This document shows positions 33,193 to 44,903 of a stretch of DNA of 55,039 nucleotides, one piece after another; within the stretch, counting starts at the first letter, position 1, and every line of letters begins with the position of its first letter. Location of the stretch: positions 1 through 55,039 of the forward strand of contig NZ_CAMTIK010000013.1 of NCBI RefSeq assembly GCF_947072685.1, given 5' to 3'. The notes beneath the pieces are model-generated. The model was given only the letters and a program-made list of their open reading frames with translations, made no database searches and was not told the DNA's origin. This DNA comes from an uncultured Cetobacterium sp. (GTDB taxonomy: Bacteria > Fusobacteriota > Fusobacteriia > Fusobacteriales > Fusobacteriaceae). The position numbers and the translations under genes were made by a program.

Positions 33193-33993
33193 CTATTTTT
33201 GTTTTTTTATTTGTATTTTTATTCCACTCCCTAAAGCTCCAAAAATAAATGCAAACTCTGGAGACATAAGTGTTAAAAATATACCTATGATAAAACTAAT
33301 TTGTTGTTTTTTTATCTTTTCATTTAATACTTTAGTAACAACTTTTATAAAATATAAAGAATACACTATTTTTAGAATACTCATTCCATTCACAATTAAT
33401 ATATTATCTAATCCTGAATATTTTTCTAGAAAAAATAATATCACATAGGGAATTAACCATAGATATGATACTTCCCAATTTATAAAACTCTCTTTATTTA
33501 AAAAATAATATGTAAAAAATACTGTCATATTCATATATACAAATACTAAGTATGAAAAATTTTCTTTTATATATGTAAAAGCCATATCAATTTCACTCTT
33601 AGAAAATTCTGTTTTTTGTGTATAGAGTGCTTTTAATTGCTCTAAACTAATATTTAAACTAACTCTGTTAAAATACATATAGATACAAACTAATCCACCT
33701 ACAATCAAACTTATTATAAATATTCTATCAAAATATTCTACTTTATCTCCATACTTTTTAAATAACAAGTATAAAATTTCTATCGATACAAATACTCCTA
33801 CATATGTTATTAAAAATTTATAGTCAACCCACCCTATAATGGCAATCGCAACAATATTAGCTATAATTTTTGTCTTCAAGTCAGCATTTTCAAGTTTTTT
33901 TATCTTATAGAAAGGTAAAAGCCAACTTAAAAGTGGCATTGATGTTGAAACTAAAAATAGTGCTGCTATAATAATTCCGGTTATAAAAAACAT
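33193..33993 (-). CDS. YybS-like (DUF2232) membrane protein
   Basis: 266 aa, seven to eight predicted membrane helices and a lysine-rich C-terminus. Sequence identity to a family is not obvious to me; the call rests on topology and on position upstream of rplI and dnaB, where Firmicutes have yybS (DUF2232) followed by yybT/gdpP. The phosphodiesterase gene gdpP is missing from this spot. Function unknown. Confidence 0.65.
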   Translation of the reverse strand: MFFITGIIIAALFLVSTSMPLLSWLLPFYKIKKLENADLKTKIIANIVAIAIIGWVDYKFLITYVGVFVSIEILYLLFKKYGDKVEYFDRIFIISLIVGGLVCIYMYFNRVSLNISLEQLKALYTQKTEFSKSEIDMAFTYIKENFSYLVFVYMNMTVFFTYYFLNKESFINWEVSYLWLIPYVILFFLEKYSGLDNILIVNGMSILKIVYSLYFIKVVTKVLNEKIKKQQISFIIGIFLTLMSPEFAFIFGALGSGIKIQIKKQK

Positions 33994-34049: not shown

Positions 34050-35513
34050 CTATATTATCTCTCCTCCAAAAAAATCAATTATCTTTTTTGAAAAATCATC
34101 TCCTGTTACTTTTTCCTTATTTTTTACTTCTTGTAACTCGTACTTTACCATCACTTTTGCACTTAAAACTTTTCTGACAACATCTAAGAACAAGCTCCTA
34201 TATGGCTCTGATTCCATCATACTTTTAGCAAAACTTTGGTCATTTTGAAAACCAACTATCACTACATTTTCTCTAAAATCTTTTGGATATGCCTTAACTA
34301 AAAATGCTCCAAAAGTTAATTTAACTTTTTTTGCTTCTGTTATTATCGTTTCCCAAGATTTTTTTATATCCTCAAAAGTTATAGTCGTAATTTCTTGTGT
34401 ATCTGTCACAAATATATCTTCAACATTTGTAAATTCTCTTTCCAATGGCTCTCGAACTTTTTCAATTACTTTTTCAATAATAATTTCTCTTTGATCCGTA
34501 ATCTCCGTTAATTTATTTAAAATAACGTATCCTACCAATTTTTTGTCCTCTTCATAACGAAACTTTGATAAAACTTCATATATCACATCAATTATTTTAA
34601 GGCCTTTTTCAACATTTAAATCACCTTTTAATATTCTATCTTTAGATCTTTTAGCCAAATCTTTAAAAAATAATTCAATATCTATTGAGTCTTTCCAAAT
34701 CTCTTCTAACAGCTCTATTCCTTCACTTTGATTTTTATTATTTACAATTTCAATAAAGTTATCTATAATTTTAACCGGTGTTATACCTAAAACACTCTCT
34801 GTTTTTTCTATTAAAATCTCTTTGTTTTCTGTATTTACAATCAATCTTTCTAAAATTGAAATAGAATCTCTCATACTTCCACCTGAGCTCTCATAAATAG
34901 CTACTAAGCTCTCTTCATCGATAGAATATCCTTCATTATCAATAATAAAGACCAAGTGCTCTCTCATATCCTTATAATTGACTGTTTTAAAATCATACCT
35001 CTGACATCTAGAAACTATTGTTGGAAGTATTTTATCTGGTTCTGTTGTTGCTAAAATAAATAACACATGCTCTGGCGGTTCTTCTAAAGTTTTTAAAAGA
35101 GCGTTAAAAGCCTCTTTCGTTAACATATGAACTTCATCTATTATATAAACTTTCTTCCTTCCTTTAGTTGGGCTGTAGTTTATTTTTTCTTTCAGTTGCC
35201 TTATTTCATCTATTCCTCTATTTGATGCCGCATCTATTTCAATCAAATCTAAAAAATTTCCTGCAGTAATTTCTAAACAATTCTCACACTCATTGCATGG
35301 GTTATCAGTTATTCCATTTTTTAAACAATTCAACCCTTTTGCCATAAGCCTAGCAATAGATGTTTTTCCAACTCCTCTAGGTCCTGTAAATAAATATGCA
35401 TGTGCTAATCTATTTGTTTTTAAAGAATTCTTTAGCGTTTTAACGATCTCCTGTTCACCAGCAATTTCATCAAATCCTTTTGGTCTATACTTTCTATATA
35501 ATGTTATATGCAT
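34050..35513 (-). CDS. dnaX: DNA polymerase III subunit gamma/tau
   Basis: 487 aa. Walker A GPRGVGKT (44-51), the zinc-binding cysteines C63, C73, C76 and C79, and Walker B/SRC motifs (VYIIDEVHMLT, ILATTEPDKILPTIVSRCQRYDF). The clamp loader ATPase places the DnaN clamp, encoded 8 kb away on the same strand, onto primed DNA. No obvious slippery A-run frameshift site for a short gamma form was found. It is the gene after the degenerate NtrC-type regulator, 23 bp away. Confidence 0.94.
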   Translation of the reverse strand: MHITLYRKYRPKGFDEIAGEQEIVKTLKNSLKTNRLAHAYLFTGPRGVGKTSIARLMAKGLNCLKNGITDNPCNECENCLEITAGNFLDLIEIDAASNRGIDEIRQLKEKINYSPTKGRKKVYIIDEVHMLTKEAFNALLKTLEEPPEHVLFILATTEPDKILPTIVSRCQRYDFKTVNYKDMREHLVFIIDNEGYSIDEESLVAIYESSGGSMRDSISILERLIVNTENKEILIEKTESVLGITPVKIIDNFIEIVNNKNQSEGIELLEEIWKDSIDIELFFKDLAKRSKDRILKGDLNVEKGLKIIDVIYEVLSKFRYEEDKKLVGYVILNKLTEITDQREIIIEKVIEKVREPLEREFTNVEDIFVTDTQEITTITFEDIKKSWETIITEAKKVKLTFGAFLVKAYPKDFRENVVIVGFQNDQSFAKSMMESEPYRSLFLDVVRKVLSAKVMVKYELQEVKNKEKVTGDDFSKKIIDFFGGEII

Positions 35514-35536: not shown

Positions 35537-36928
35537 TTACTCCAAGCCATAGTTATTCATCTTCGTTCTCAGTGTATTTCTAGTAATTCCAAGTAGTTCC
35601 GCTGTTTCAACTTTTTTACCACTTGTTATTTCCAGTACTTGACGAATCAGTTCTTTTTCTACTTTAGATATTATAATCCCATAATAGTTATTTTGCTTAT
35701 TATTTTTTAAACCTAATAGTTCTCCTTCAATCCAATCACTTAATATCCAAGTTTGATTATCCCCTTTTCTTTTAGAGATTTTATTCCCTGTAACATTTCC
35801 GGGTAACTCTTCTACTAATATTGAACTTCCTCTACAAAGAGCAACAGCTGATTTAATGGCATTTTTTAATTCATTGACATTTCCTGGCCAATCATATCTC
35901 ATGATTTTTTTCATTGCTGGCTTACTTACACCTTTTATTGATTTATGTAATTCATCATTACAACCAACTAAGTAGTGATCTATTATAAACGGAATATCAT
36001 CTTTTCTATCTCTTAGTGGTGGGATAGTTATCTCTAAAATTTTCAGTTTATTATATAGTTCATCTATAAATAACTTTTTATTTATAAGTTCCTCTAAATT
36101 TTCACTTGTTGTCGCTACAATTCGAACATCAATCTTAACAGGTTCTGATCCCCCCATTCTAAAAAACTCTCCCTCTTGAAGAAGGTATAAAATTTTAGAT
36201 TGCATATCTAAACTTAGAGACTCTATATTCCCCAAATGTAACGTTCCACCATTAGCCTTTTCTAAATCTCCTATTTGAGAAAAAGCTGCTCCTTCGAAGG
36301 CTCCTTTTTCATATCCAAATAATTTTCTCTCTAATAAATCATTTTGAAATGATGTACAATTTAAACTTAAAAATGCTTTATTGCTCCAATCACTAAACTG
36401 ATGTATAGCCATTGCTACACTGCTTTTTCCAGTCCCTTTTTCTCCAACAACCAATACTGGAACTCTACTATTAGAAACTCTTCCTATCATCTTGTAAACT
36501 TCTACAATCTCTTTAGTTTGCCCTATTAATTTGTCTCCAGTATTTTTATTTTTATCTACTCTTTCAGCTAAAAGCTTATGATCTTTCACGGCTTTTTCCA
36601 AAATTTTATTAATCTCTTTTGGACTAATCGGCTTTAATATATAGTCATATGCTCCTGCTTTTATGGCTCCAGCAACTAATTTTAAATTTGAAGTTTCTCC
36701 CAATATAACAATAACCGACCTTTTGTGAGTTTCAATAATTTTTTTTACTAAATTTACCAATGCTTCTTGCTGTAAATTAGTTTCATCAATAACTATAGCT
36801 TCATATTTTCTTTCCTTTAACAAATCCATAAAAGATGTTATATTTTCAGCAAATCTTAACTCATTCTCAAAATTACTTTCTAATTCATCCCTTAATTCAT
36901 TCTCTAATCTAAATCCTAAAAGAGTCAA
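35537..36928 (-). CDS. degenerate NtrC-type regulator (pseudo-enhancer-binding protein)
   Basis: 463 aa from a TTG after GAGGGTGG. Receiver-like domain 1-115 (possible phosphosite D48, conserved K99, but no acidic pair at the N-terminus), AAA+ domain 135-370, and a Fis-type HTH at 425-463 (ETAELLGITRNTLRTKMNNY). Walker A GEKGTGKS (162-169) is intact. Walker B reads HLGN (G233, N234) instead of LDE; GAFTGA reads GAFEGA (209-214); the two arginine fingers are I288 and K294; the sensor II arginine of WPGNVRxL is N352. So ATP binding may persist, but hydrolysis and sigma-54 remodelling should be lost. It may act as a DNA-binding switch on sigma-70 promoters. Between tonB and dnaX in one transcript. 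Confidence 0.85.
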   Translation of the reverse strand: MTLLGFRLENELRDELESNFENELRFAENITSFMDLLKERKYEAIVIDETNLQQEALVNLVKKIIETHKRSVIVILGETSNLKLVAGAIKAGAYDYILKPISPKEINKILEKAVKDHKLLAERVDKNKNTGDKLIGQTKEIVEVYKMIGRVSNSRVPVLVVGEKGTGKSSVAMAIHQFSDWSNKAFLSLNCTSFQNDLLERKLFGYEKGAFEGAAFSQIGDLEKANGGTLHLGNIESLSLDMQSKILYLLQEGEFFRMGGSEPVKIDVRIVATTSENLEELINKKLFIDELYNKLKILEITIPPLRDRKDDIPFIIDHYLVGCNDELHKSIKGVSKPAMKKIMRYDWPGNVNELKNAIKSAVALCRGSSILVEELPGNVTGNKISKRKGDNQTWILSDWIEGELLGLKNNKQNNYYGIIISKVEKELIRQVLEITSGKKVETAELLGITRNTLRTKMNNYGLE

Positions 36929-36957: not shown

Positions 36958-37866
36958 CTAATTAGAAGTACCCAGTAATTTAAAGCTATACTCTAATGTT
37001 ACATTCCCTTTGATATTTAATCCATTTTTACTCAGATATATTCTCCAAGTTCTTGCAATCTCTTCAATAGCCTCATTTATTTCTGGAACTCCACTTCCTT
37101 TTTCTATGAATACAGATGAAACTCTGCCCATTTCATCAATTTGTATTTTTAATAGTACCTTTCCTTGCATCCCTTTCAGCTGAGCTGATTCTGGATATTT
37201 GGGTTCTCTGTTCTCTTGATCCCATTTTGCAACTACGTCTCCATCTTCAACTCCCAGTTTATATCCACTTGGAAGCCCATCGGCACCTTTTTTCTCCACC
37301 ATAGATTTAAATCCTAGTTCTTCTTCTCCATCCCCTTCAAAAGCTATATTTTTATTGTTTTCCATTTCAAAATCCAAAGTTTTATCTAAAACACTTGTCT
37401 CTTTTTCAATAGAAATATCCTTTTGCGAATTAAGTATAGATGCTTTTTTTACTTCTTCCAAACTTTTTTTATCTAACAACTTTTTTTTCAAATCACTATT
37501 AGTTTCTCTAGTTGAAGTTTTATCTATTGCTAGTAACTCCGTTTCTCTCTTTGAAAAATCTTTTGCTAAATCTTCTAAAGTTATTTTTTTCGTTTCTTTT
37601 TCTACTGGACTTACATCTTTTTTTATTTCCTTTATTTCCGCTACTTTTTTACTCTCTTTTTTATCATCTTTTGGTTGAGGTGGTTTTTTCTTAGGTTCAG
37701 CTTTTGTAGTTGTTTTTTTATTATCTTTTTCAAGAGTAACCAATCCTATTTTTAATTTTTTATCAACAATCTTATCTATCCTAAATCCCGGAATGGAAAA
37801 AAGAATTATTATATTTATAATAATCGATGCAGCTAAAATTTTAAAATCATTATTTTCTCTTTTCAT
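36958..37866 (-). CDS. tonB: TonB family energy transducer
   Basis: 302 aa from the ATG 10 nt after AGGTG; a GTG four codons earlier is the alternative. One N-terminal helix (ILAASIIINIIILFSIPGF), a long lysine- and proline-containing periplasmic linker with PKKKPPQPK, and a C-terminal TonB domain (EPKYPESAQLKGMQGKVLLK ... VFIEKGSG). It transmits proton-motive energy from ExbB-ExbD to outer membrane receptors. Immediately downstream of exbD. Confidence 0.9.
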   Translation of the reverse strand: MKRENNDFKILAASIIINIIILFSIPGFRIDKIVDKKLKIGLVTLEKDNKKTTTKAEPKKKPPQPKDDKKESKKVAEIKEIKKDVSPVEKETKKITLEDLAKDFSKRETELLAIDKTSTRETNSDLKKKLLDKKSLEEVKKASILNSQKDISIEKETSVLDKTLDFEMENNKNIAFEGDGEEELGFKSMVEKKGADGLPSGYKLGVEDGDVVAKWDQENREPKYPESAQLKGMQGKVLLKIQIDEMGRVSSVFIEKGSGVPEINEAIEEIARTWRIYLSKNGLNIKGNVTLEYSFKLLGTSN

Positions 37867-37878
37867 AGACCCATACAC

Positions 37879-38319
37879 CTACTTTCCAGGAGAAGCTGTA
37901 TCTATATCTAAAGAACTAGCTCCTGCCTCTTTTGATGCAGTCATGACATCTACAATCACTCCATGACTAACACTTTTATCCGCACTTATGATTACATTTT
38001 TATCATCCGACTCCATAAGTTTTTGTGCTAGTGCATTTTTTAAGTCTTTAGCACTTGTTCTTTCTCTTTTATTCTTCCCTTGATCTTTGTAGCTTATAAA
38101 GTATTCTCTATCCTTTGTTACTATCACCTGTAATTCATTTACTGGCTTTGTACTTTTCACAGTTGAGGTTGGTAAATCTATTTTTATACTGCTGTCCACA
38201 TCCTCAAATGTTGTAGCAACTAAGAAGAAAATTAATAATAAAAAGACTACGTCAATTAAGGGAGTTAATTCAAGGATCAAAGAGTTTCCATTTCTTCTTT
38301 TAATTCTATTAAGCTTCAT
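37879..38319 (-). CDS. exbD: ExbD biopolymer transport protein
   Basis: 146 aa, one N-terminal membrane helix containing the essential aspartate (LTPLIDVVFLLLIFFLVATT) and a periplasmic domain. With ExbB it forms the proton-driven motor for TonB. GGAGGGGG precedes the ATG, 12 bp after exbB. Confidence 0.93.
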   Translation of the reverse strand: MKLNRIKRRNGNSLILELTPLIDVVFLLLIFFLVATTFEDVDSSIKIDLPTSTVKSTKPVNELQVIVTKDREYFISYKDQGKNKRERTSAKDLKNALAQKLMESDDKNVIISADKSVSHGVIVDVMTASKEAGASSLDIDTASPGK

Positions 38320-38331
38320 TCTCCCCCTCCT

Positions 38332-38943
38332 TTATTTTCTAAAGTAGTTTATTAACTCCGCACTACCTTTTTCCATATCATTTATTTGATCATCTATCTT
38401 CTTATTGAAATAATTATAGAAAATAATTGACGGGATAGCTACAAATAATCCTCCTGCTGTTGTTAATAAGGCTTGAGATATCCCACTTGCCAACACTGAT
38501 GGATCCCCTGTTCCATGAAGAGAAACAGCTTGAAACGCCTTTATCATTCCTGTTACAGTTCCTAAAAGTCCTATTAATGGAGTTGTATGTGCTACAACTG
38601 AAAGTAACCACATATTTCTTTCTAGTCTTGGTATTTGAGCCAACGCAACCTCTCTTGCTTTCTCTTCGAGTGTTTCAACATTAGAACTTCTAGTTTTATA
38701 CCAATAAATTAAAACTTCTTTCAATACTTTTGATGTTGAACTCTTTTGATTTCCCAAACTTGTTATTGCACCTTTAATATCATTTTTTTCAATTGCTTGA
38801 CGTAAAATAGGTCTTATTCTTGACATATCTACATTTTCGTTAGTTTTAAAGTAAATTGCTCTCTCTATTATTACATAAACTCCTAATATTGACATTAAAA
38901 CTATAAAATACATAAGTATTCCACCATTTACTAACCAGTACAT
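38332..38943 (-). CDS. exbB: ExbB/TolQ/MotA-type proton channel protein
   Basis: 203 aa with three membrane helices. The conserved MotA/TolQ/ExbB region ARTTPLIGLLGTVTGMI-like (here AHTTPLIGLLGTVTGMI) and GISQALLTTAGGLFVAIPS are present. Motor subunit of the TonB system. AGGAGG ribosome binding site; upstream lies the 110-aa exported protein. Confidence 0.92.
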   Translation of the reverse strand: MYWLVNGGILMYFIVLMSILGVYVIIERAIYFKTNENVDMSRIRPILRQAIEKNDIKGAITSLGNQKSSTSKVLKEVLIYWYKTRSSNVETLEEKAREVALAQIPRLERNMWLLSVVAHTTPLIGLLGTVTGMIKAFQAVSLHGTGDPSVLASGISQALLTTAGGLFVAIPSIIFYNYFNKKIDDQINDMEKGSAELINYFRK

Positions 38944-38975: not shown

Positions 38976-39308
38976 TTATAACGCTATTCCAAGTGTCACC
39001 AAAGCTACTACACCAATAATATATTTCCATATAGGCGTTCCGCTATCTGTTTCTGTTAAACTTTTATTCATTGATTCATTTGATTCATTTAGTTGAATTA
39101 TTTGTTTTTGATCTTTATATTTATCAGCTGATATATTTTTATCATCTAATTTTATAACTTTTTTTTCAATGTTTACATTACTTTCTTTTGGATAAACTTC
39201 TAATTGTTCTTTGTTAACACCTGTTACTTGTTTGTCAATAATAACTTCCTCGTTAGCAAACACCCCTAAAGATAAAGTCATCAACCCTATAACTACTAAT
39301 TTTTTCAT
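38976..39308 (-). CDS. small exported protein with C-terminal membrane anchor
   Basis: 110 aa. A signal peptide (MKKLVVIGLMTLSLGVFA), about 65 charged residues with repeated lysine/valine/aspartate pattern, then a C-terminal hydrophobic helix (WKYIIGVVALVTLGIAL). Its start codon overlaps the stop of the TPR gene (ATGA), so it is translated together with it. No family recognised. Placed between the TPR protein and ExbB, it could link periplasmic TPR protein and motor complex; that is inference. Confidence 0.75.
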   Translation of the reverse strand: MKKLVVIGLMTLSLGVFANEEVIIDKQVTGVNKEQLEVYPKESNVNIEKKVIKLDDKNISADKYKDQKQIIQLNESNESMNKSLTETDSGTPIWKYIIGVVALVTLGIAL

Positions 39309-42725: not shown

Positions 42726-42753
42726 ATTATACCACAAATAATTGTGTTTGCAA
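42726..42753 (-). promoter_or_regulatory. promoter of the DUF116-TPR-TonB operon
   Basis: Minus strand TTGCAA, 16 bp, TATAAT with a TGG extension (extended -10). It lies 33 nt upstream of the DUF116 start and directly after the dnaN terminator. Confidence 0.75.
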
Positions 42754-42786
42754 AATAAAAACTAGCTACACAGTGAGCTAGTTTTT
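42754..42786 (-). terminator. terminator of dnaN
   Basis: Minus strand AAAAACTAGCT, an 8-nt loop, AGCTAGTTTTT, then ATTTT. An 11-bp stem just after the dnaN stop codon. Confidence 0.85.
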
Positions 42787-42792
42787 AAGAAT

Positions 42793-43914
42793 CTAATCTT
42801 TCAAAGCTAAAGGCATCACAATATAAGTATAATTATCTTCATACATATTTCTTGTCCTTACAGCACTATTTGATGTTGTAAACTCTAAGCAAATTGTATC
42901 TTTAGCGCTTGATTGAATAAATTCCAATAAAAACTTTACATTTAAAGATATTTTTAAGTTTTCACCACTATAATTCACTTTAGATATTTCCTTTGCTTTT
43001 GCTATTTCTCCTACCCCTTCAATGTCTAAAATATCTTTATCTAATGCAAATACTGCACCAAATTTAGATTCTGAATTATTTTTTACAAATATCTGAATTC
43101 TTTTTAACATTTTTTCGAAGGCAACTCTATTAATTTCAAGTTTTTTATTATATCCACTTGCTTCTAGTATTGTTTTATAATTTGGGAAAGGTAAGTCAAT
43201 AACTCTACTTACTATAGATATCTTTCCTAATCTGAAATAAAGTTGTTTATTTTTTTGAGTGAATGCGATCTCCTCTTCATTCCCATTTCTTAATAACTTA
43301 GACATAGCATCTATTGTATTAATAGGTATACTAACTTTAAATACACCTTTATTTCCTATATATTCATTTTCTAAGTAAGTCAATCTATATGTATCCGTTG
43401 AGATAAACTTTATTTTTTCCTCTTCTATTTCAACCCTAATACAATTTATTGATAGATTATCACTTGACATCGATGCAGAAAATTTAACCTTATCAAAATT
43501 ATCTGCTAAATCTAGCTTTTTTAATTTAAATTCAAACTCTTCATCTTCTATCTCTTCGTCTTGAATTCTTGGGAATTCTTCGGCATTCATAAGAGTAAAC
43601 TCCGATGATGAATCTGGTGTCTCAATAGTTAAAATATCATCTTCAATATTTAAAACAATCATTTCATCTTTTATCTCTTTTAAATATTCCTCAACTAAAT
43701 TGTGTTGGAAAACTGCCTTTCCTTCATTTACAATTTCACATTCCATCTCTGTAGATATTGTTAGTTCTAAATTTGTTCCACAAAACCATAGCTTCCCATT
43801 TCTAGTTTCTATAAAAACATAAGAGATAATTGGTCTAATTTTATTTTCATTAATTGCTTTTTCTACAATTTTTATTTTTTTTAAAAACTCTAACCTATTA
43901 ACTTTTAAAATCAA
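42793..43914 (-). CDS. dnaN: DNA polymerase III sliding clamp (beta subunit)
   Basis: 373 aa from a TTG start preceded by GGAGG, the only plausible start. Three clamp domains of about 120 residues. Typical segments are RPIISYVFIETRNGKLWFCGTNLELTIS-like (residues 22-50) and, near the end, the VRTRNMYEDNYTYIVMPLAL motif that forms the peptide-binding pocket. It is not next to dnaA here; it follows a sigma factor gene by 15 bp. Confidence 0.93.
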   Translation of the reverse strand: MILKVNRLEFLKKIKIVEKAINENKIRPIISYVFIETRNGKLWFCGTNLELTISTEMECEIVNEGKAVFQHNLVEEYLKEIKDEMIVLNIEDDILTIETPDSSSEFTLMNAEEFPRIQDEEIEDEEFEFKLKKLDLADNFDKVKFSASMSSDNLSINCIRVEIEEEKIKFISTDTYRLTYLENEYIGNKGVFKVSIPINTIDAMSKLLRNGNEEEIAFTQKNKQLYFRLGKISIVSRVIDLPFPNYKTILEASGYNKKLEINRVAFEKMLKRIQIFVKNNSESKFGAVFALDKDILDIEGVGEIAKAKEISKVNYSGENLKISLNVKFLLEFIQSSAKDTICLEFTTSNSAVRTRNMYEDNYTYIVMPLALKD

Positions 43915-43929: not shown

Positions 43930-44754
43930 TCAATAGTAATAGTTTCCTTTTAACAAGTCACTATAACGCATTCTTAATTTTTCTAAAGTTTTTTGTTCAA
44001 TCTGTCTTACTCTTTCTCTCGTTATACTAAAACTTTGTCCTATATCTTCAAGTGTATGTATCTGATTTCCATCAAAACCAAATCTCATCTTTAAAATTTG
44101 TTTCTCTCGTTCATTCAATTTATTCAAAATCTCATTTATTTGCTCTGTACTTATATCCCTTATCAATTTATTTTCTAAATCATTGTGTACTTCGCTCGCA
44201 ATTATATCTTCCAAACAAATGTCCTCTCCAATTGGAGAACTTAATGATATAGTTTCTTGAAATTCAAGCATTAATTCTTGAACTTTTTCAAGAGGATAAC
44301 CTATCCCTTCAGATATTTCAAAAATACTTGGATAATCTCCCCTTGCCATAACACAATCCATTATAAACTTATTAGTTTTATTCAACAGATCATGTTTATA
44401 TGATGGTATTCTAATCTCTCTACCTTTACTTATGATAGCCTTACTGATGGCCTGTTTTATCCACCAAACTGCATATGTAGAAAGTCTATATCCTTTTTCT
44501 ATATCAAATTTTTCTATTGCATATATAAGACCAAAATTTCCTTCACTTATTAAATCAATAAAACTCATTCCTTTATTTCCATACTTTTTGGCTACATTAA
44601 CTACCAATCTTAAATTACATACAATCAATCTTTCCCTTGCTTCAACGTCACCATTTTTAGCCCTTGTTAAAAGTTCAACTTCTTCATCTTTTCCTAACAC
44701 TTCATACTCTTTTATGTCTTCTAAATAAAATGAAACTAAATCTCTTTCTGTCAT
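43930..44754 (-). CDS. group 2 sigma-70 factor (RpoD/RpoS-like)
   Basis: 274 aa from the ATG after GGGGTG. Regions 1.2, 2, 3 and 4 are complete: core binding and -10 recognition at LISEGNFGLIYAIEKFDIEKGYRLSTYAVWWIKQAI (split across regions 2.2-2.4), and the region 4 HTH LEDIGQSFSITRERVRQIEQKTLEKLR. Region 1.1 and the large non-conserved insertion of primary RpoD are missing, so it looks like an alternative, stress- or growth-phase-type sigma rather than the housekeeping one; no primary sigma factor is present in this window to compare with. Coupled to dnaN. Confidence 0.8.
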   Translation of the reverse strand: MTERDLVSFYLEDIKEYEVLGKDEEVELLTRAKNGDVEARERLIVCNLRLVVNVAKKYGNKGMSFIDLISEGNFGLIYAIEKFDIEKGYRLSTYAVWWIKQAISKAIISKGREIRIPSYKHDLLNKTNKFIMDCVMARGDYPSIFEISEGIGYPLEKVQELMLEFQETISLSSPIGEDICLEDIIASEVHNDLENKLIRDISTEQINEILNKLNEREKQILKMRFGFDGNQIHTLEDIGQSFSITRERVRQIEQKTLEKLRMRYSDLLKGNYYY

Positions 44755-44903
44755 ATACACCCCATACCTTCATTAGTTGTCTTTTACTAAGTTGTGAATC
44801 TGTGTGTTGCTAATGTGTTGATTTTTTAATTTGATTTATGTTGTTAGATATAATATTCAATTGTCTTATAACCTTTTGTATAAATTTTATGTATAACTAA
44901 TCT

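What the first reader, a model, noticed from the sequence alone, without database searches (positions are those of the whole stretch)
35537..36928. NtrC-like protein with a dead AAA+ engine inside a replication/TonB operon
Aligning by eye to NtrC/PspF: Walker A kept; Walker B aspartate and glutamate replaced by G233 and N234; GAFTGA changed to GAFEGA; both arginine fingers (I288, K294) and sensor II arginine (N352) gone; receiver lacks its acidic pair. Yet the reading frame and Fis-type HTH are intact, so it is a maintained pseudo-enzyme, not a decaying gene. It cannot be expected to drive sigma-54. A nucleotide-sensing DNA-binding protein encoded between tonB and dnaX would be a new role.
Basis: partly seen in the sequence, partly recalled or inferred. 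Interest (0 to 1): 0.68.

Follow-up and report, generated by a model that had tools for sequence, protein, structure and literature searches.

The report
Conserved NtrC-type regulator without working motor
Most of the bacterial phylum this genome belongs to (probably Fusobacteriota) keeps, at one fixed spot between tonB and dnaX, a gene-control protein built like a molecular motor whose fuel-burning parts are gone but whose fuel-binding loop and DNA-binding end are almost unchanged, so it most likely works as a DNA-binding switch and not as the sigma-54 motor its family is named for.

Summary
The gene (minus strand, 463 aa, TTG start) is REC–AAA+–Fis-HTH. Walker B is GN, L1 is GAFEGA, both Arg fingers (I288, K294) and the sensor II Arg (N352) are lost, and the receiver pocket is degenerate, although D48 and K99 remain. 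It is not decaying: dN/dS is 0.012 in the closest pair, lower than in dnaX, tonB or exbD. I found 57 orthologues in 98 genomes of the phylum, at exbB–exbD–tonB–X–dnaX wherever flanks allowed a check. One orthologue in another family keeps the complete engine, so the ancestor was probably an active enhancer-binding protein. Walker B was replaced in several different ways, while five P-loop residues are invariant in all 57. Fifteen genomes keep X but show no rpoN, including a single-contig one, so X cannot generally need sigma-54. The window's own genome does have rpoN and canonical activators. Best explanation: a sigma-54-independent DNA-binding regulator with a non-hydrolysing, probably nucleotide-binding AAA+ domain, working like TyrR, HupR or R. 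capsulatus NtrC. Targets and ligand are unknown. Francke 2011 had already flagged a GAF-E-GA, rpoN-less case in F. nucleatum. New variant of a known kind.

The parts
35537..36928 (-). X: REC-AAA+-Fis-HTH protein, 463 aa, TTG start; degenerate NtrC-family regulator
   Evidence: dN/dS; AlphaFold pLDDT 91
36554..36928 (-). degenerate receiver domain (aa 1-125): acidic pair D11/D12 is L/E, T82 is G; D48 and K99 present
36422..36445 (-). Walker A / P-loop GEKGTGKS (aa 162-169); G162, E163, G165, G167, K168 invariant in 57 of 57
36287..36304 (-). L1 loop GAFEGA (aa 209-214) in place of GAFTGA
36227..36232 (-). Walker B acids replaced by G233 N234
36047..36067 (-). Arg-finger segment IDELYNK: I288 and K294 in place of R162 and R168 (PspF numbering)
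35873..35875 (-). sensor II Arg replaced by N352
35540..35674 (-). Fis/NtrC-type helix-turn-helix (aa 419-463), the most conserved domain (mean 89% identity within family f1)
36958..37878 (-). tonB, conserved upstream neighbour
37879..38319 (-). exbD, conserved operon gene (named from order and homology; not itself scanned in Pfam)
38332..38943 (-). exbB, conserved operon gene
34050..35513 (-). dnaX, conserved downstream neighbour (named by homology; not itself scanned in Pfam)
42726..42754 (-). predicted sigma-70 extended -10 promoter in front of the operon, conserved in near relatives; no conserved operator seen

Best explanation
X is a sigma-54-independent DNA-binding transcription regulator derived from an ordinary NtrC-type activator. 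Shown: the catalytic residues for ATP hydrolysis, inter-subunit sensing and sigma-54 contact are gone; the P-loop and the Fis-type HTH are held nearly fixed; the gene is under very strong purifying selection; it persists where rpoN is not detectable. Inferred: the AAA+ domain still binds ATP or ADP (or another nucleotide) without hydrolysing it and acts as an assembly and ligand-gated scaffold that sets how the Fis-type HTHs bind DNA; X then represses or activates sigma-70 promoters directly. The receiver probably no longer works as a classical phospho-switch. Targets are unknown.
For: Motif table of 57 orthologues: Walker A G, E, G, G, K each 57/57; switch Asn 54/57; Walker B intact DE 1/57; R162 retained 2/57; L1 Thr retained 5/57. 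P-loop enrichment among invariant AAA+ columns p = 2.5e-4. HTH 89% mean identity and 17 of 45 columns invariant. dN/dS 0.012 against dnaX 0.059, tonB 0.10, exbD 0.096. rpoN not found by two domain models in 15 genomes that keep X, including single-contig G015 and the 3-4 contig genomes G024, G064, G065. Syntenic orthologue with full engine, L022/G026. Monophyly 100/100. Model pLDDT 91; nearest full-length folds NtrC1 and Brucella NtrX.
Against: No ligand, DNA site or target promoter was found. Walker A could be kept only for folding. The operon promoter shows no conserved operator, so autoregulation is not supported. Four orthologues of genus g13 keep GAFTGA with Walker B GN, which is unexplained. 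The model was built from canonical bEBP sequences, so its canonical fold is partly expected.
Confidence: 0.72

Rival explanations
1. X is a sigma-54 activator in decay, on its way to being a pseudogene.
For: Catalytic motifs are lost and differ between lineages; one genus has lost the gene cleanly.
Against: 57 orthologues, all without internal stops, dN/dS 0.009-0.10, replacements fixed across many genera (GN in 48 of 57), HTH nearly invariant.
Confidence: 0.03
2. X still remodels sigma-54 holoenzyme in a non-canonical way where rpoN is present.
For: The window's own genome has rpoN and canonical activators; four g13 orthologues keep GAFTGA, and those genomes have rpoN.
Against: Walker B acids and both Arg fingers are gone; X is kept in 15 genomes without detectable rpoN.
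Confidence: 0.06
3. X is the non-catalytic subunit of a mixed AAA+ ring with the second phylum-conserved NtrC-like protein (G000:C8:92601-93890), which keeps DE and the Arg fingers.
For: Both are present in nearly all genomes of families f1-f3; mixed bEBP rings such as HrpR/HrpS are known (own knowledge).
Against: G012 (100% complete) and G097 have X but not the partner; G013 and G063 have the partner but not X; the partner is truncated in G053 while X is intact.
Confidence: 0.1
4. X is a cyclic-di-GMP effector like FleQ or VpsR.
For: Same AAA+ scaffold; GGDEF proteins are present in the own genome; VpsR is among the structural matches.
Against: G012 and single-contig G015 keep X but have no GGDEF hit; by eye the post-Walker-A Arg used by FleQ-type effectors is absent in X (alignment; motif described in PMC10714721).
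Confidence: 0.05
5. X is mainly an architectural or replication-linked DNA-binding protein (Fis-like) and not a promoter regulator.
For: HTH resembles E. coli Fis (local BLAST of the pair E 1e-10, 34% over 56 aa); fixed place beside dnaX; very strong constraint.
Against: The HTH also resembles NtrC's (18 of 43 identical); adjacency to dnaX may be only co-transcription, and dnaX lies next to tonB without X in G013 and G063.
Confidence: 0.12

Closest known systems
NtrC-family sigma-54 enhancer-binding proteins (E. coli NtrC, PspF, Aquifex NtrC1)
   Same: REC-AAA+-Fis-HTH order, P-loop, lid, fold (NtrC1 best hit)
   Different: Walker B DE, GAFTGA, both Arg fingers, sensor II Arg and receiver pocket lost; kept in rpoN-less genomes
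TyrR / PhhR (sigma-70 regulators of aromatic amino acid genes)
   Same: NtrC-related, GAFTGA lost, sigma-54-independent
   Different: E. coli TyrR keeps Walker B DE, Arg fingers and sensor II Arg, has no receiver (own knowledge) and a different HTH (3 of 43 identical)
R. capsulatus HupR and NtrC, Caulobacter NtrC
   Same: NtrC relatives reported to act on sigma-70 promoters; R. capsulatus NtrC needs ATP binding rather than hydrolysis (as reported in PMC10274813)
   Different: the two NtrC proteins use aspartyl phosphorylation and have L1 deletions (PMC10274813); Caulobacter NtrC still needs Walker B; X has substitutions, not an L1 deletion, and a degenerate receiver
VpsR (Vibrio cholerae)
   Same: bEBP-like, no GAFTGA, sigma-70 promoters, reported not to need ATP (PMC10274813)
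   Different: c-di-GMP ligand, excluded here as a family-wide ligand; lower similarity (phmmer E 1.4e-36 against 2.7e-70 for NtrC1)
Brucella NtrX (PDB 5m7n/o/p)
   Same: among the nearest full-length structures; solved with ATP and with ADP
   Different: its motif state was not compared here; only about 25% identical
GAF-E-GA protein of F. nucleatum flagged by Francke et al. 2011 (PMC3162934)
   Same: Thr to Glu in GAFTGA, no rpoN in that genome; sigma-70 role suggested
   Different: only L1 discussed; Walker B, Arg fingers, synteny and constraint not described in the passages read; cannot be shown here whether it is X or the second conserved NtrC-like protein

Membership tests
sigma-54 enhancer-binding proteins (functional) | AAA+ domain of the Sigma54_activat family | tested here: met
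   Pfam PF00158 E 3.6e-54
sigma-54 enhancer-binding proteins (functional) | GAFTGA L1 motif | tested here: not met
   GAFEGA; intact in 5 of 57 orthologues
sigma-54 enhancer-binding proteins (functional) | Walker B Asp and Glu | tested here: not met
   G233 N234; DE in 1 of 57
sigma-54 enhancer-binding proteins (functional) | two arginine fingers | tested here: not met
   I288 and K294; R162 retained in 2 of 57, R168 in 12 of 57
sigma-54 enhancer-binding proteins (functional) | occurs with RpoN | tested here: not met
   rpoN present in own genome, but 15 genomes with X show none
sigma-54 enhancer-binding proteins (functional) | ATP hydrolysis drives open-complex formation | not testable with these tools
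   biochemical assay needed
two-component response regulators | acidic pair, phospho-Asp, Thr/Ser and Lys | tested here: not met
   phospho-acceptor Asp and Lys present; acidic pair L/E and Thr replaced by Gly; acceptor is Glu in 28 of 57
sigma-54-independent NtrC relatives (TyrR/HupR/VpsR kind) | NtrC-family architecture without functional GAFTGA | tested here: met
sigma-54-independent NtrC relatives (TyrR/HupR/VpsR kind) | acts at sigma-70 promoters | not testable with these tools
   inferred from persistence without rpoN; no targets known
c-di-GMP-binding bEBPs (FleQ/VpsR kind) | c-di-GMP synthesis in the host genome | tested here: not met
   no GGDEF hit in G012 and G015, which keep X, though the own genome has three; so not the family-wide ligand

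The most novel reading that the evidence does not exclude
A phylum-wide regulator has turned the sigma-54 AAA+ motor into a non-hydrolysing nucleotide sensor: ATP/ADP or an alarmone bound at the invariant P-loop sets its assembly and DNA binding, linking cell energy or growth state to transcription, with loss of the engine having happened several times in parallel in the same syntenic gene.
Probability: 0.3. Interest if true: 0.72.

Novelty: new variant of a known kind. Interest (0 to 1): 0.5.

Why it matters
It is a natural experiment on how an obligate sigma-54 motor becomes a sigma-54-independent regulator: one syntenic gene, an intact version in one family, partial and complete losses in others, with and without rpoN. 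It separates which parts of the AAA+ domain are needed for gene control without hydrolysis (P-loop, fold, HTH) from those that are not. It is also more constrained than its operon neighbours dnaX, tonB and exbD, with no known target, and automated annotation is likely to call it NtrC or a sigma-54 activator wrongly.

Tried and rejected
Palindrome CACAATTATTTGTG over the operon promoter as operator: not conserved in relatives. NtrC-type sites TGCAC-N6-GTGCA: three in the genome, one inside pgi and two in intergenic stretches that are not upstream of a listed gene; uninformative. Regulation tied to TonB-dependent uptake: G064 and G065 (three contigs each) keep X with no receptor barrel found at E 1e-8, while much of family f4 has receptors without X. 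FN0308 as the F. nucleatum orthologue: the paper calls it an iron transporter. Tn-seq or essentiality data for Fusobacterium: none found on this gene.

Full report
What is there. The gene at 35537-36928 is on the minus strand and encodes a 463-aa protein with a TTG start. Pfam gives a weak receiver (1.2e-9), a strong Sigma54_activat domain (3.6e-54), the AAA lid and a Fis-type HTH. NCBIfam's best model is ntrC, but at 337 bits against a cut-off of 559. One refinement: the receiver has lost the acidic pair (L and E) and the Thr (G), but keeps Asp48 at the phospho-acceptor position and Lys99.

Surroundings. X lies in a co-directional run: DUF116 protein, TPR protein, a 110-aa ORF, exbB, exbD, tonB, X, dnaX. 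The run begins at a predicted extended -10 sigma-70 promoter (42754-42726) that is conserved in near relatives. No conserved operator was seen there; the palindrome that overlaps it in the window is not conserved.

Relatives. In 98 genomes of the phylum, 57 hold a full or nearly full match at E below 1e-110. They cover nearly all genomes of three families (f1, f2, f3) and one genome of a further family (G097, same class). Family f4 has none. Where flanking sequence allowed a check, the order was exbD/tonB-X-dnaX, including the class-level relative G097 and the intact orthologue of G026; in two or three loci tonB or dnaX was not recognised or lay outside the contig. Genus g3 (G013, G063) has tonB joined directly to dnaX, a clean deletion of X.

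The engine. Over 57 orthologues: P-loop G, E, G, G and K are each 57 of 57; the switch Asn 54; Walker B is GN in 48, AN in 3, and GS, DE, EE, KE, ED, KK once each; R162 is kept in 2, R168 in 12, sensor II Arg in 12; L1 Thr in 5. The acidic residue after the Walker A Lys that marks enhancer-binding proteins (PMC7175178) has become S, T, K or others in most. Five of the eight P-loop positions are among the 25 invariant columns of the 260 AAA+ and lid columns (p = 2.5e-4). Only L022 (G026) has the whole canonical set. It is at the same locus, and the tree puts it sister to all other members with support 97/93, the whole family being monophyletic at 100/100. So the simplest history is an active ancestor and several separate losses (GN group, EE in G025, ED in G097, K-containing in g6). 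The root is not proven and the long branches of G097 and g6 are uncertain.

Not decay. dN/dS in the closest informative pair (G000-G004) is 0.012, against 0.059 for dnaX, 0.10 for tonB and 0.096 for exbD; other pairs give 0.009-0.10, with synonymous sites near saturation in the wider ones. The HTH is the most conserved domain (mean 89% identity within f1), then lid and AAA+ (78%, 75%), receiver (61%) and linker (56%).

Sigma-54. The decisive point is that 15 genomes keep X with no convincing rpoN by two domain models: G012, G015, G016, G019, G020, G022, G024, G044, G064, G065, G067, G068, G076, G077, G097. G016 and G020 have only short marginal hits (E about 1e-4) to one model and none to the other. 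Some of the 15 are incomplete, but G015 is one contig, G064 and G065 three, G024 four, and G012 100% complete.

Ligand and partner tests. c-di-GMP cannot be the family-wide ligand: G012 and G015 have no GGDEF hit. A mixed ring with the second conserved NtrC-like protein is not obligatory: G012 and G097 have X without it, G013 and G063 the reverse. AlphaFold with 32 canonical bEBPs as alignment gave pLDDT 91 and pTM 0.60; nearest full-length structures are NtrC1 and Brucella NtrX. Domain folds are reliable; the domain arrangement is not, and the alignment used biases toward a canonical fold.

How it most likely works. A DNA-binding regulator whose AAA+ domain binds nucleotide without hydrolysis and sets assembly or DNA binding, acting directly at sigma-70 promoters. 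Shown: loss of catalytic residues, retention of P-loop and HTH, constraint, persistence without rpoN. Inferred: nucleotide binding, oligomer gating, sigma-70 promoters, any target.

Known or new. Sigma-54-independent NtrC relatives are known: TyrR, DhaR, HupR (PMC3162934), R. capsulatus and Caulobacter NtrC and VpsR (PMC10274813). Francke and co-workers noted in 2011 that rpoN-less F. nucleatum has an EBP with Glu in place of the GAFTGA Thr and proposed sigma-70 dependence (PMC3162934). Whether that is X or the second conserved protein (one of its orthologues also reads GAFEGA) cannot be settled here. What seems new is the combined loss of Walker B, Arg fingers and receiver pocket with a frozen P-loop, the phylum-wide syntenic conservation, and the intact relative at the same locus. 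Hence a new variant of a known kind.

Noticed in passing
G000:C8:92601-93890 (+), locus L152: A second NtrC-like regulator, conserved in nearly all genomes of families f1-f3 including rpoN-less ones, keeps Walker B acids (DE, DQ in G013), Arg fingers in most and sensor II Arg, but has GAFLGA, GAYPGA or GAFEGA in place of GAFTGA in the f1 members read (GAFTGA in G026) and an altered receiver pocket.
   Followed up: partly
window 43930-44760 (-) and 42793-43914 (-): A 276-aa sigma-70-family factor (regions 1.2, 2, 3, 4) next to a divergent beta-clamp (DnaN) gene; the pair is conserved upstream of the operon in most relatives read.
   Followed up: no
window 38976-39308 (-): 110-aa ORF with a signal-peptide-like start and a hydrophobic C-terminus, no Pfam match, conserved between the TPR gene and exbB in most relatives.
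   Followed up: no
window 33193-33993 (-): 266-aa membrane-protein-like ORF between dnaX and rplI without a Pfam match, conserved in position in many family f1 genomes.
   Followed up: no
L136, L139, L141, L142 (genus g13): Four orthologues of X keep an exact GAFTGA although Walker B is GN and R162 is lost; all four genomes have rpoN. Unexplained.
   Followed up: no
L195, L196 (G013, G063): X is cleanly missing between tonB and dnaX in genus g3, which also lacks detectable rpoN.
   Followed up: partly
L157, L024 (genus g6): The most degenerate orthologues: L1 region unrecognisable, Walker B KK or KE, yet P-loop and HTH intact.
   Followed up: partly
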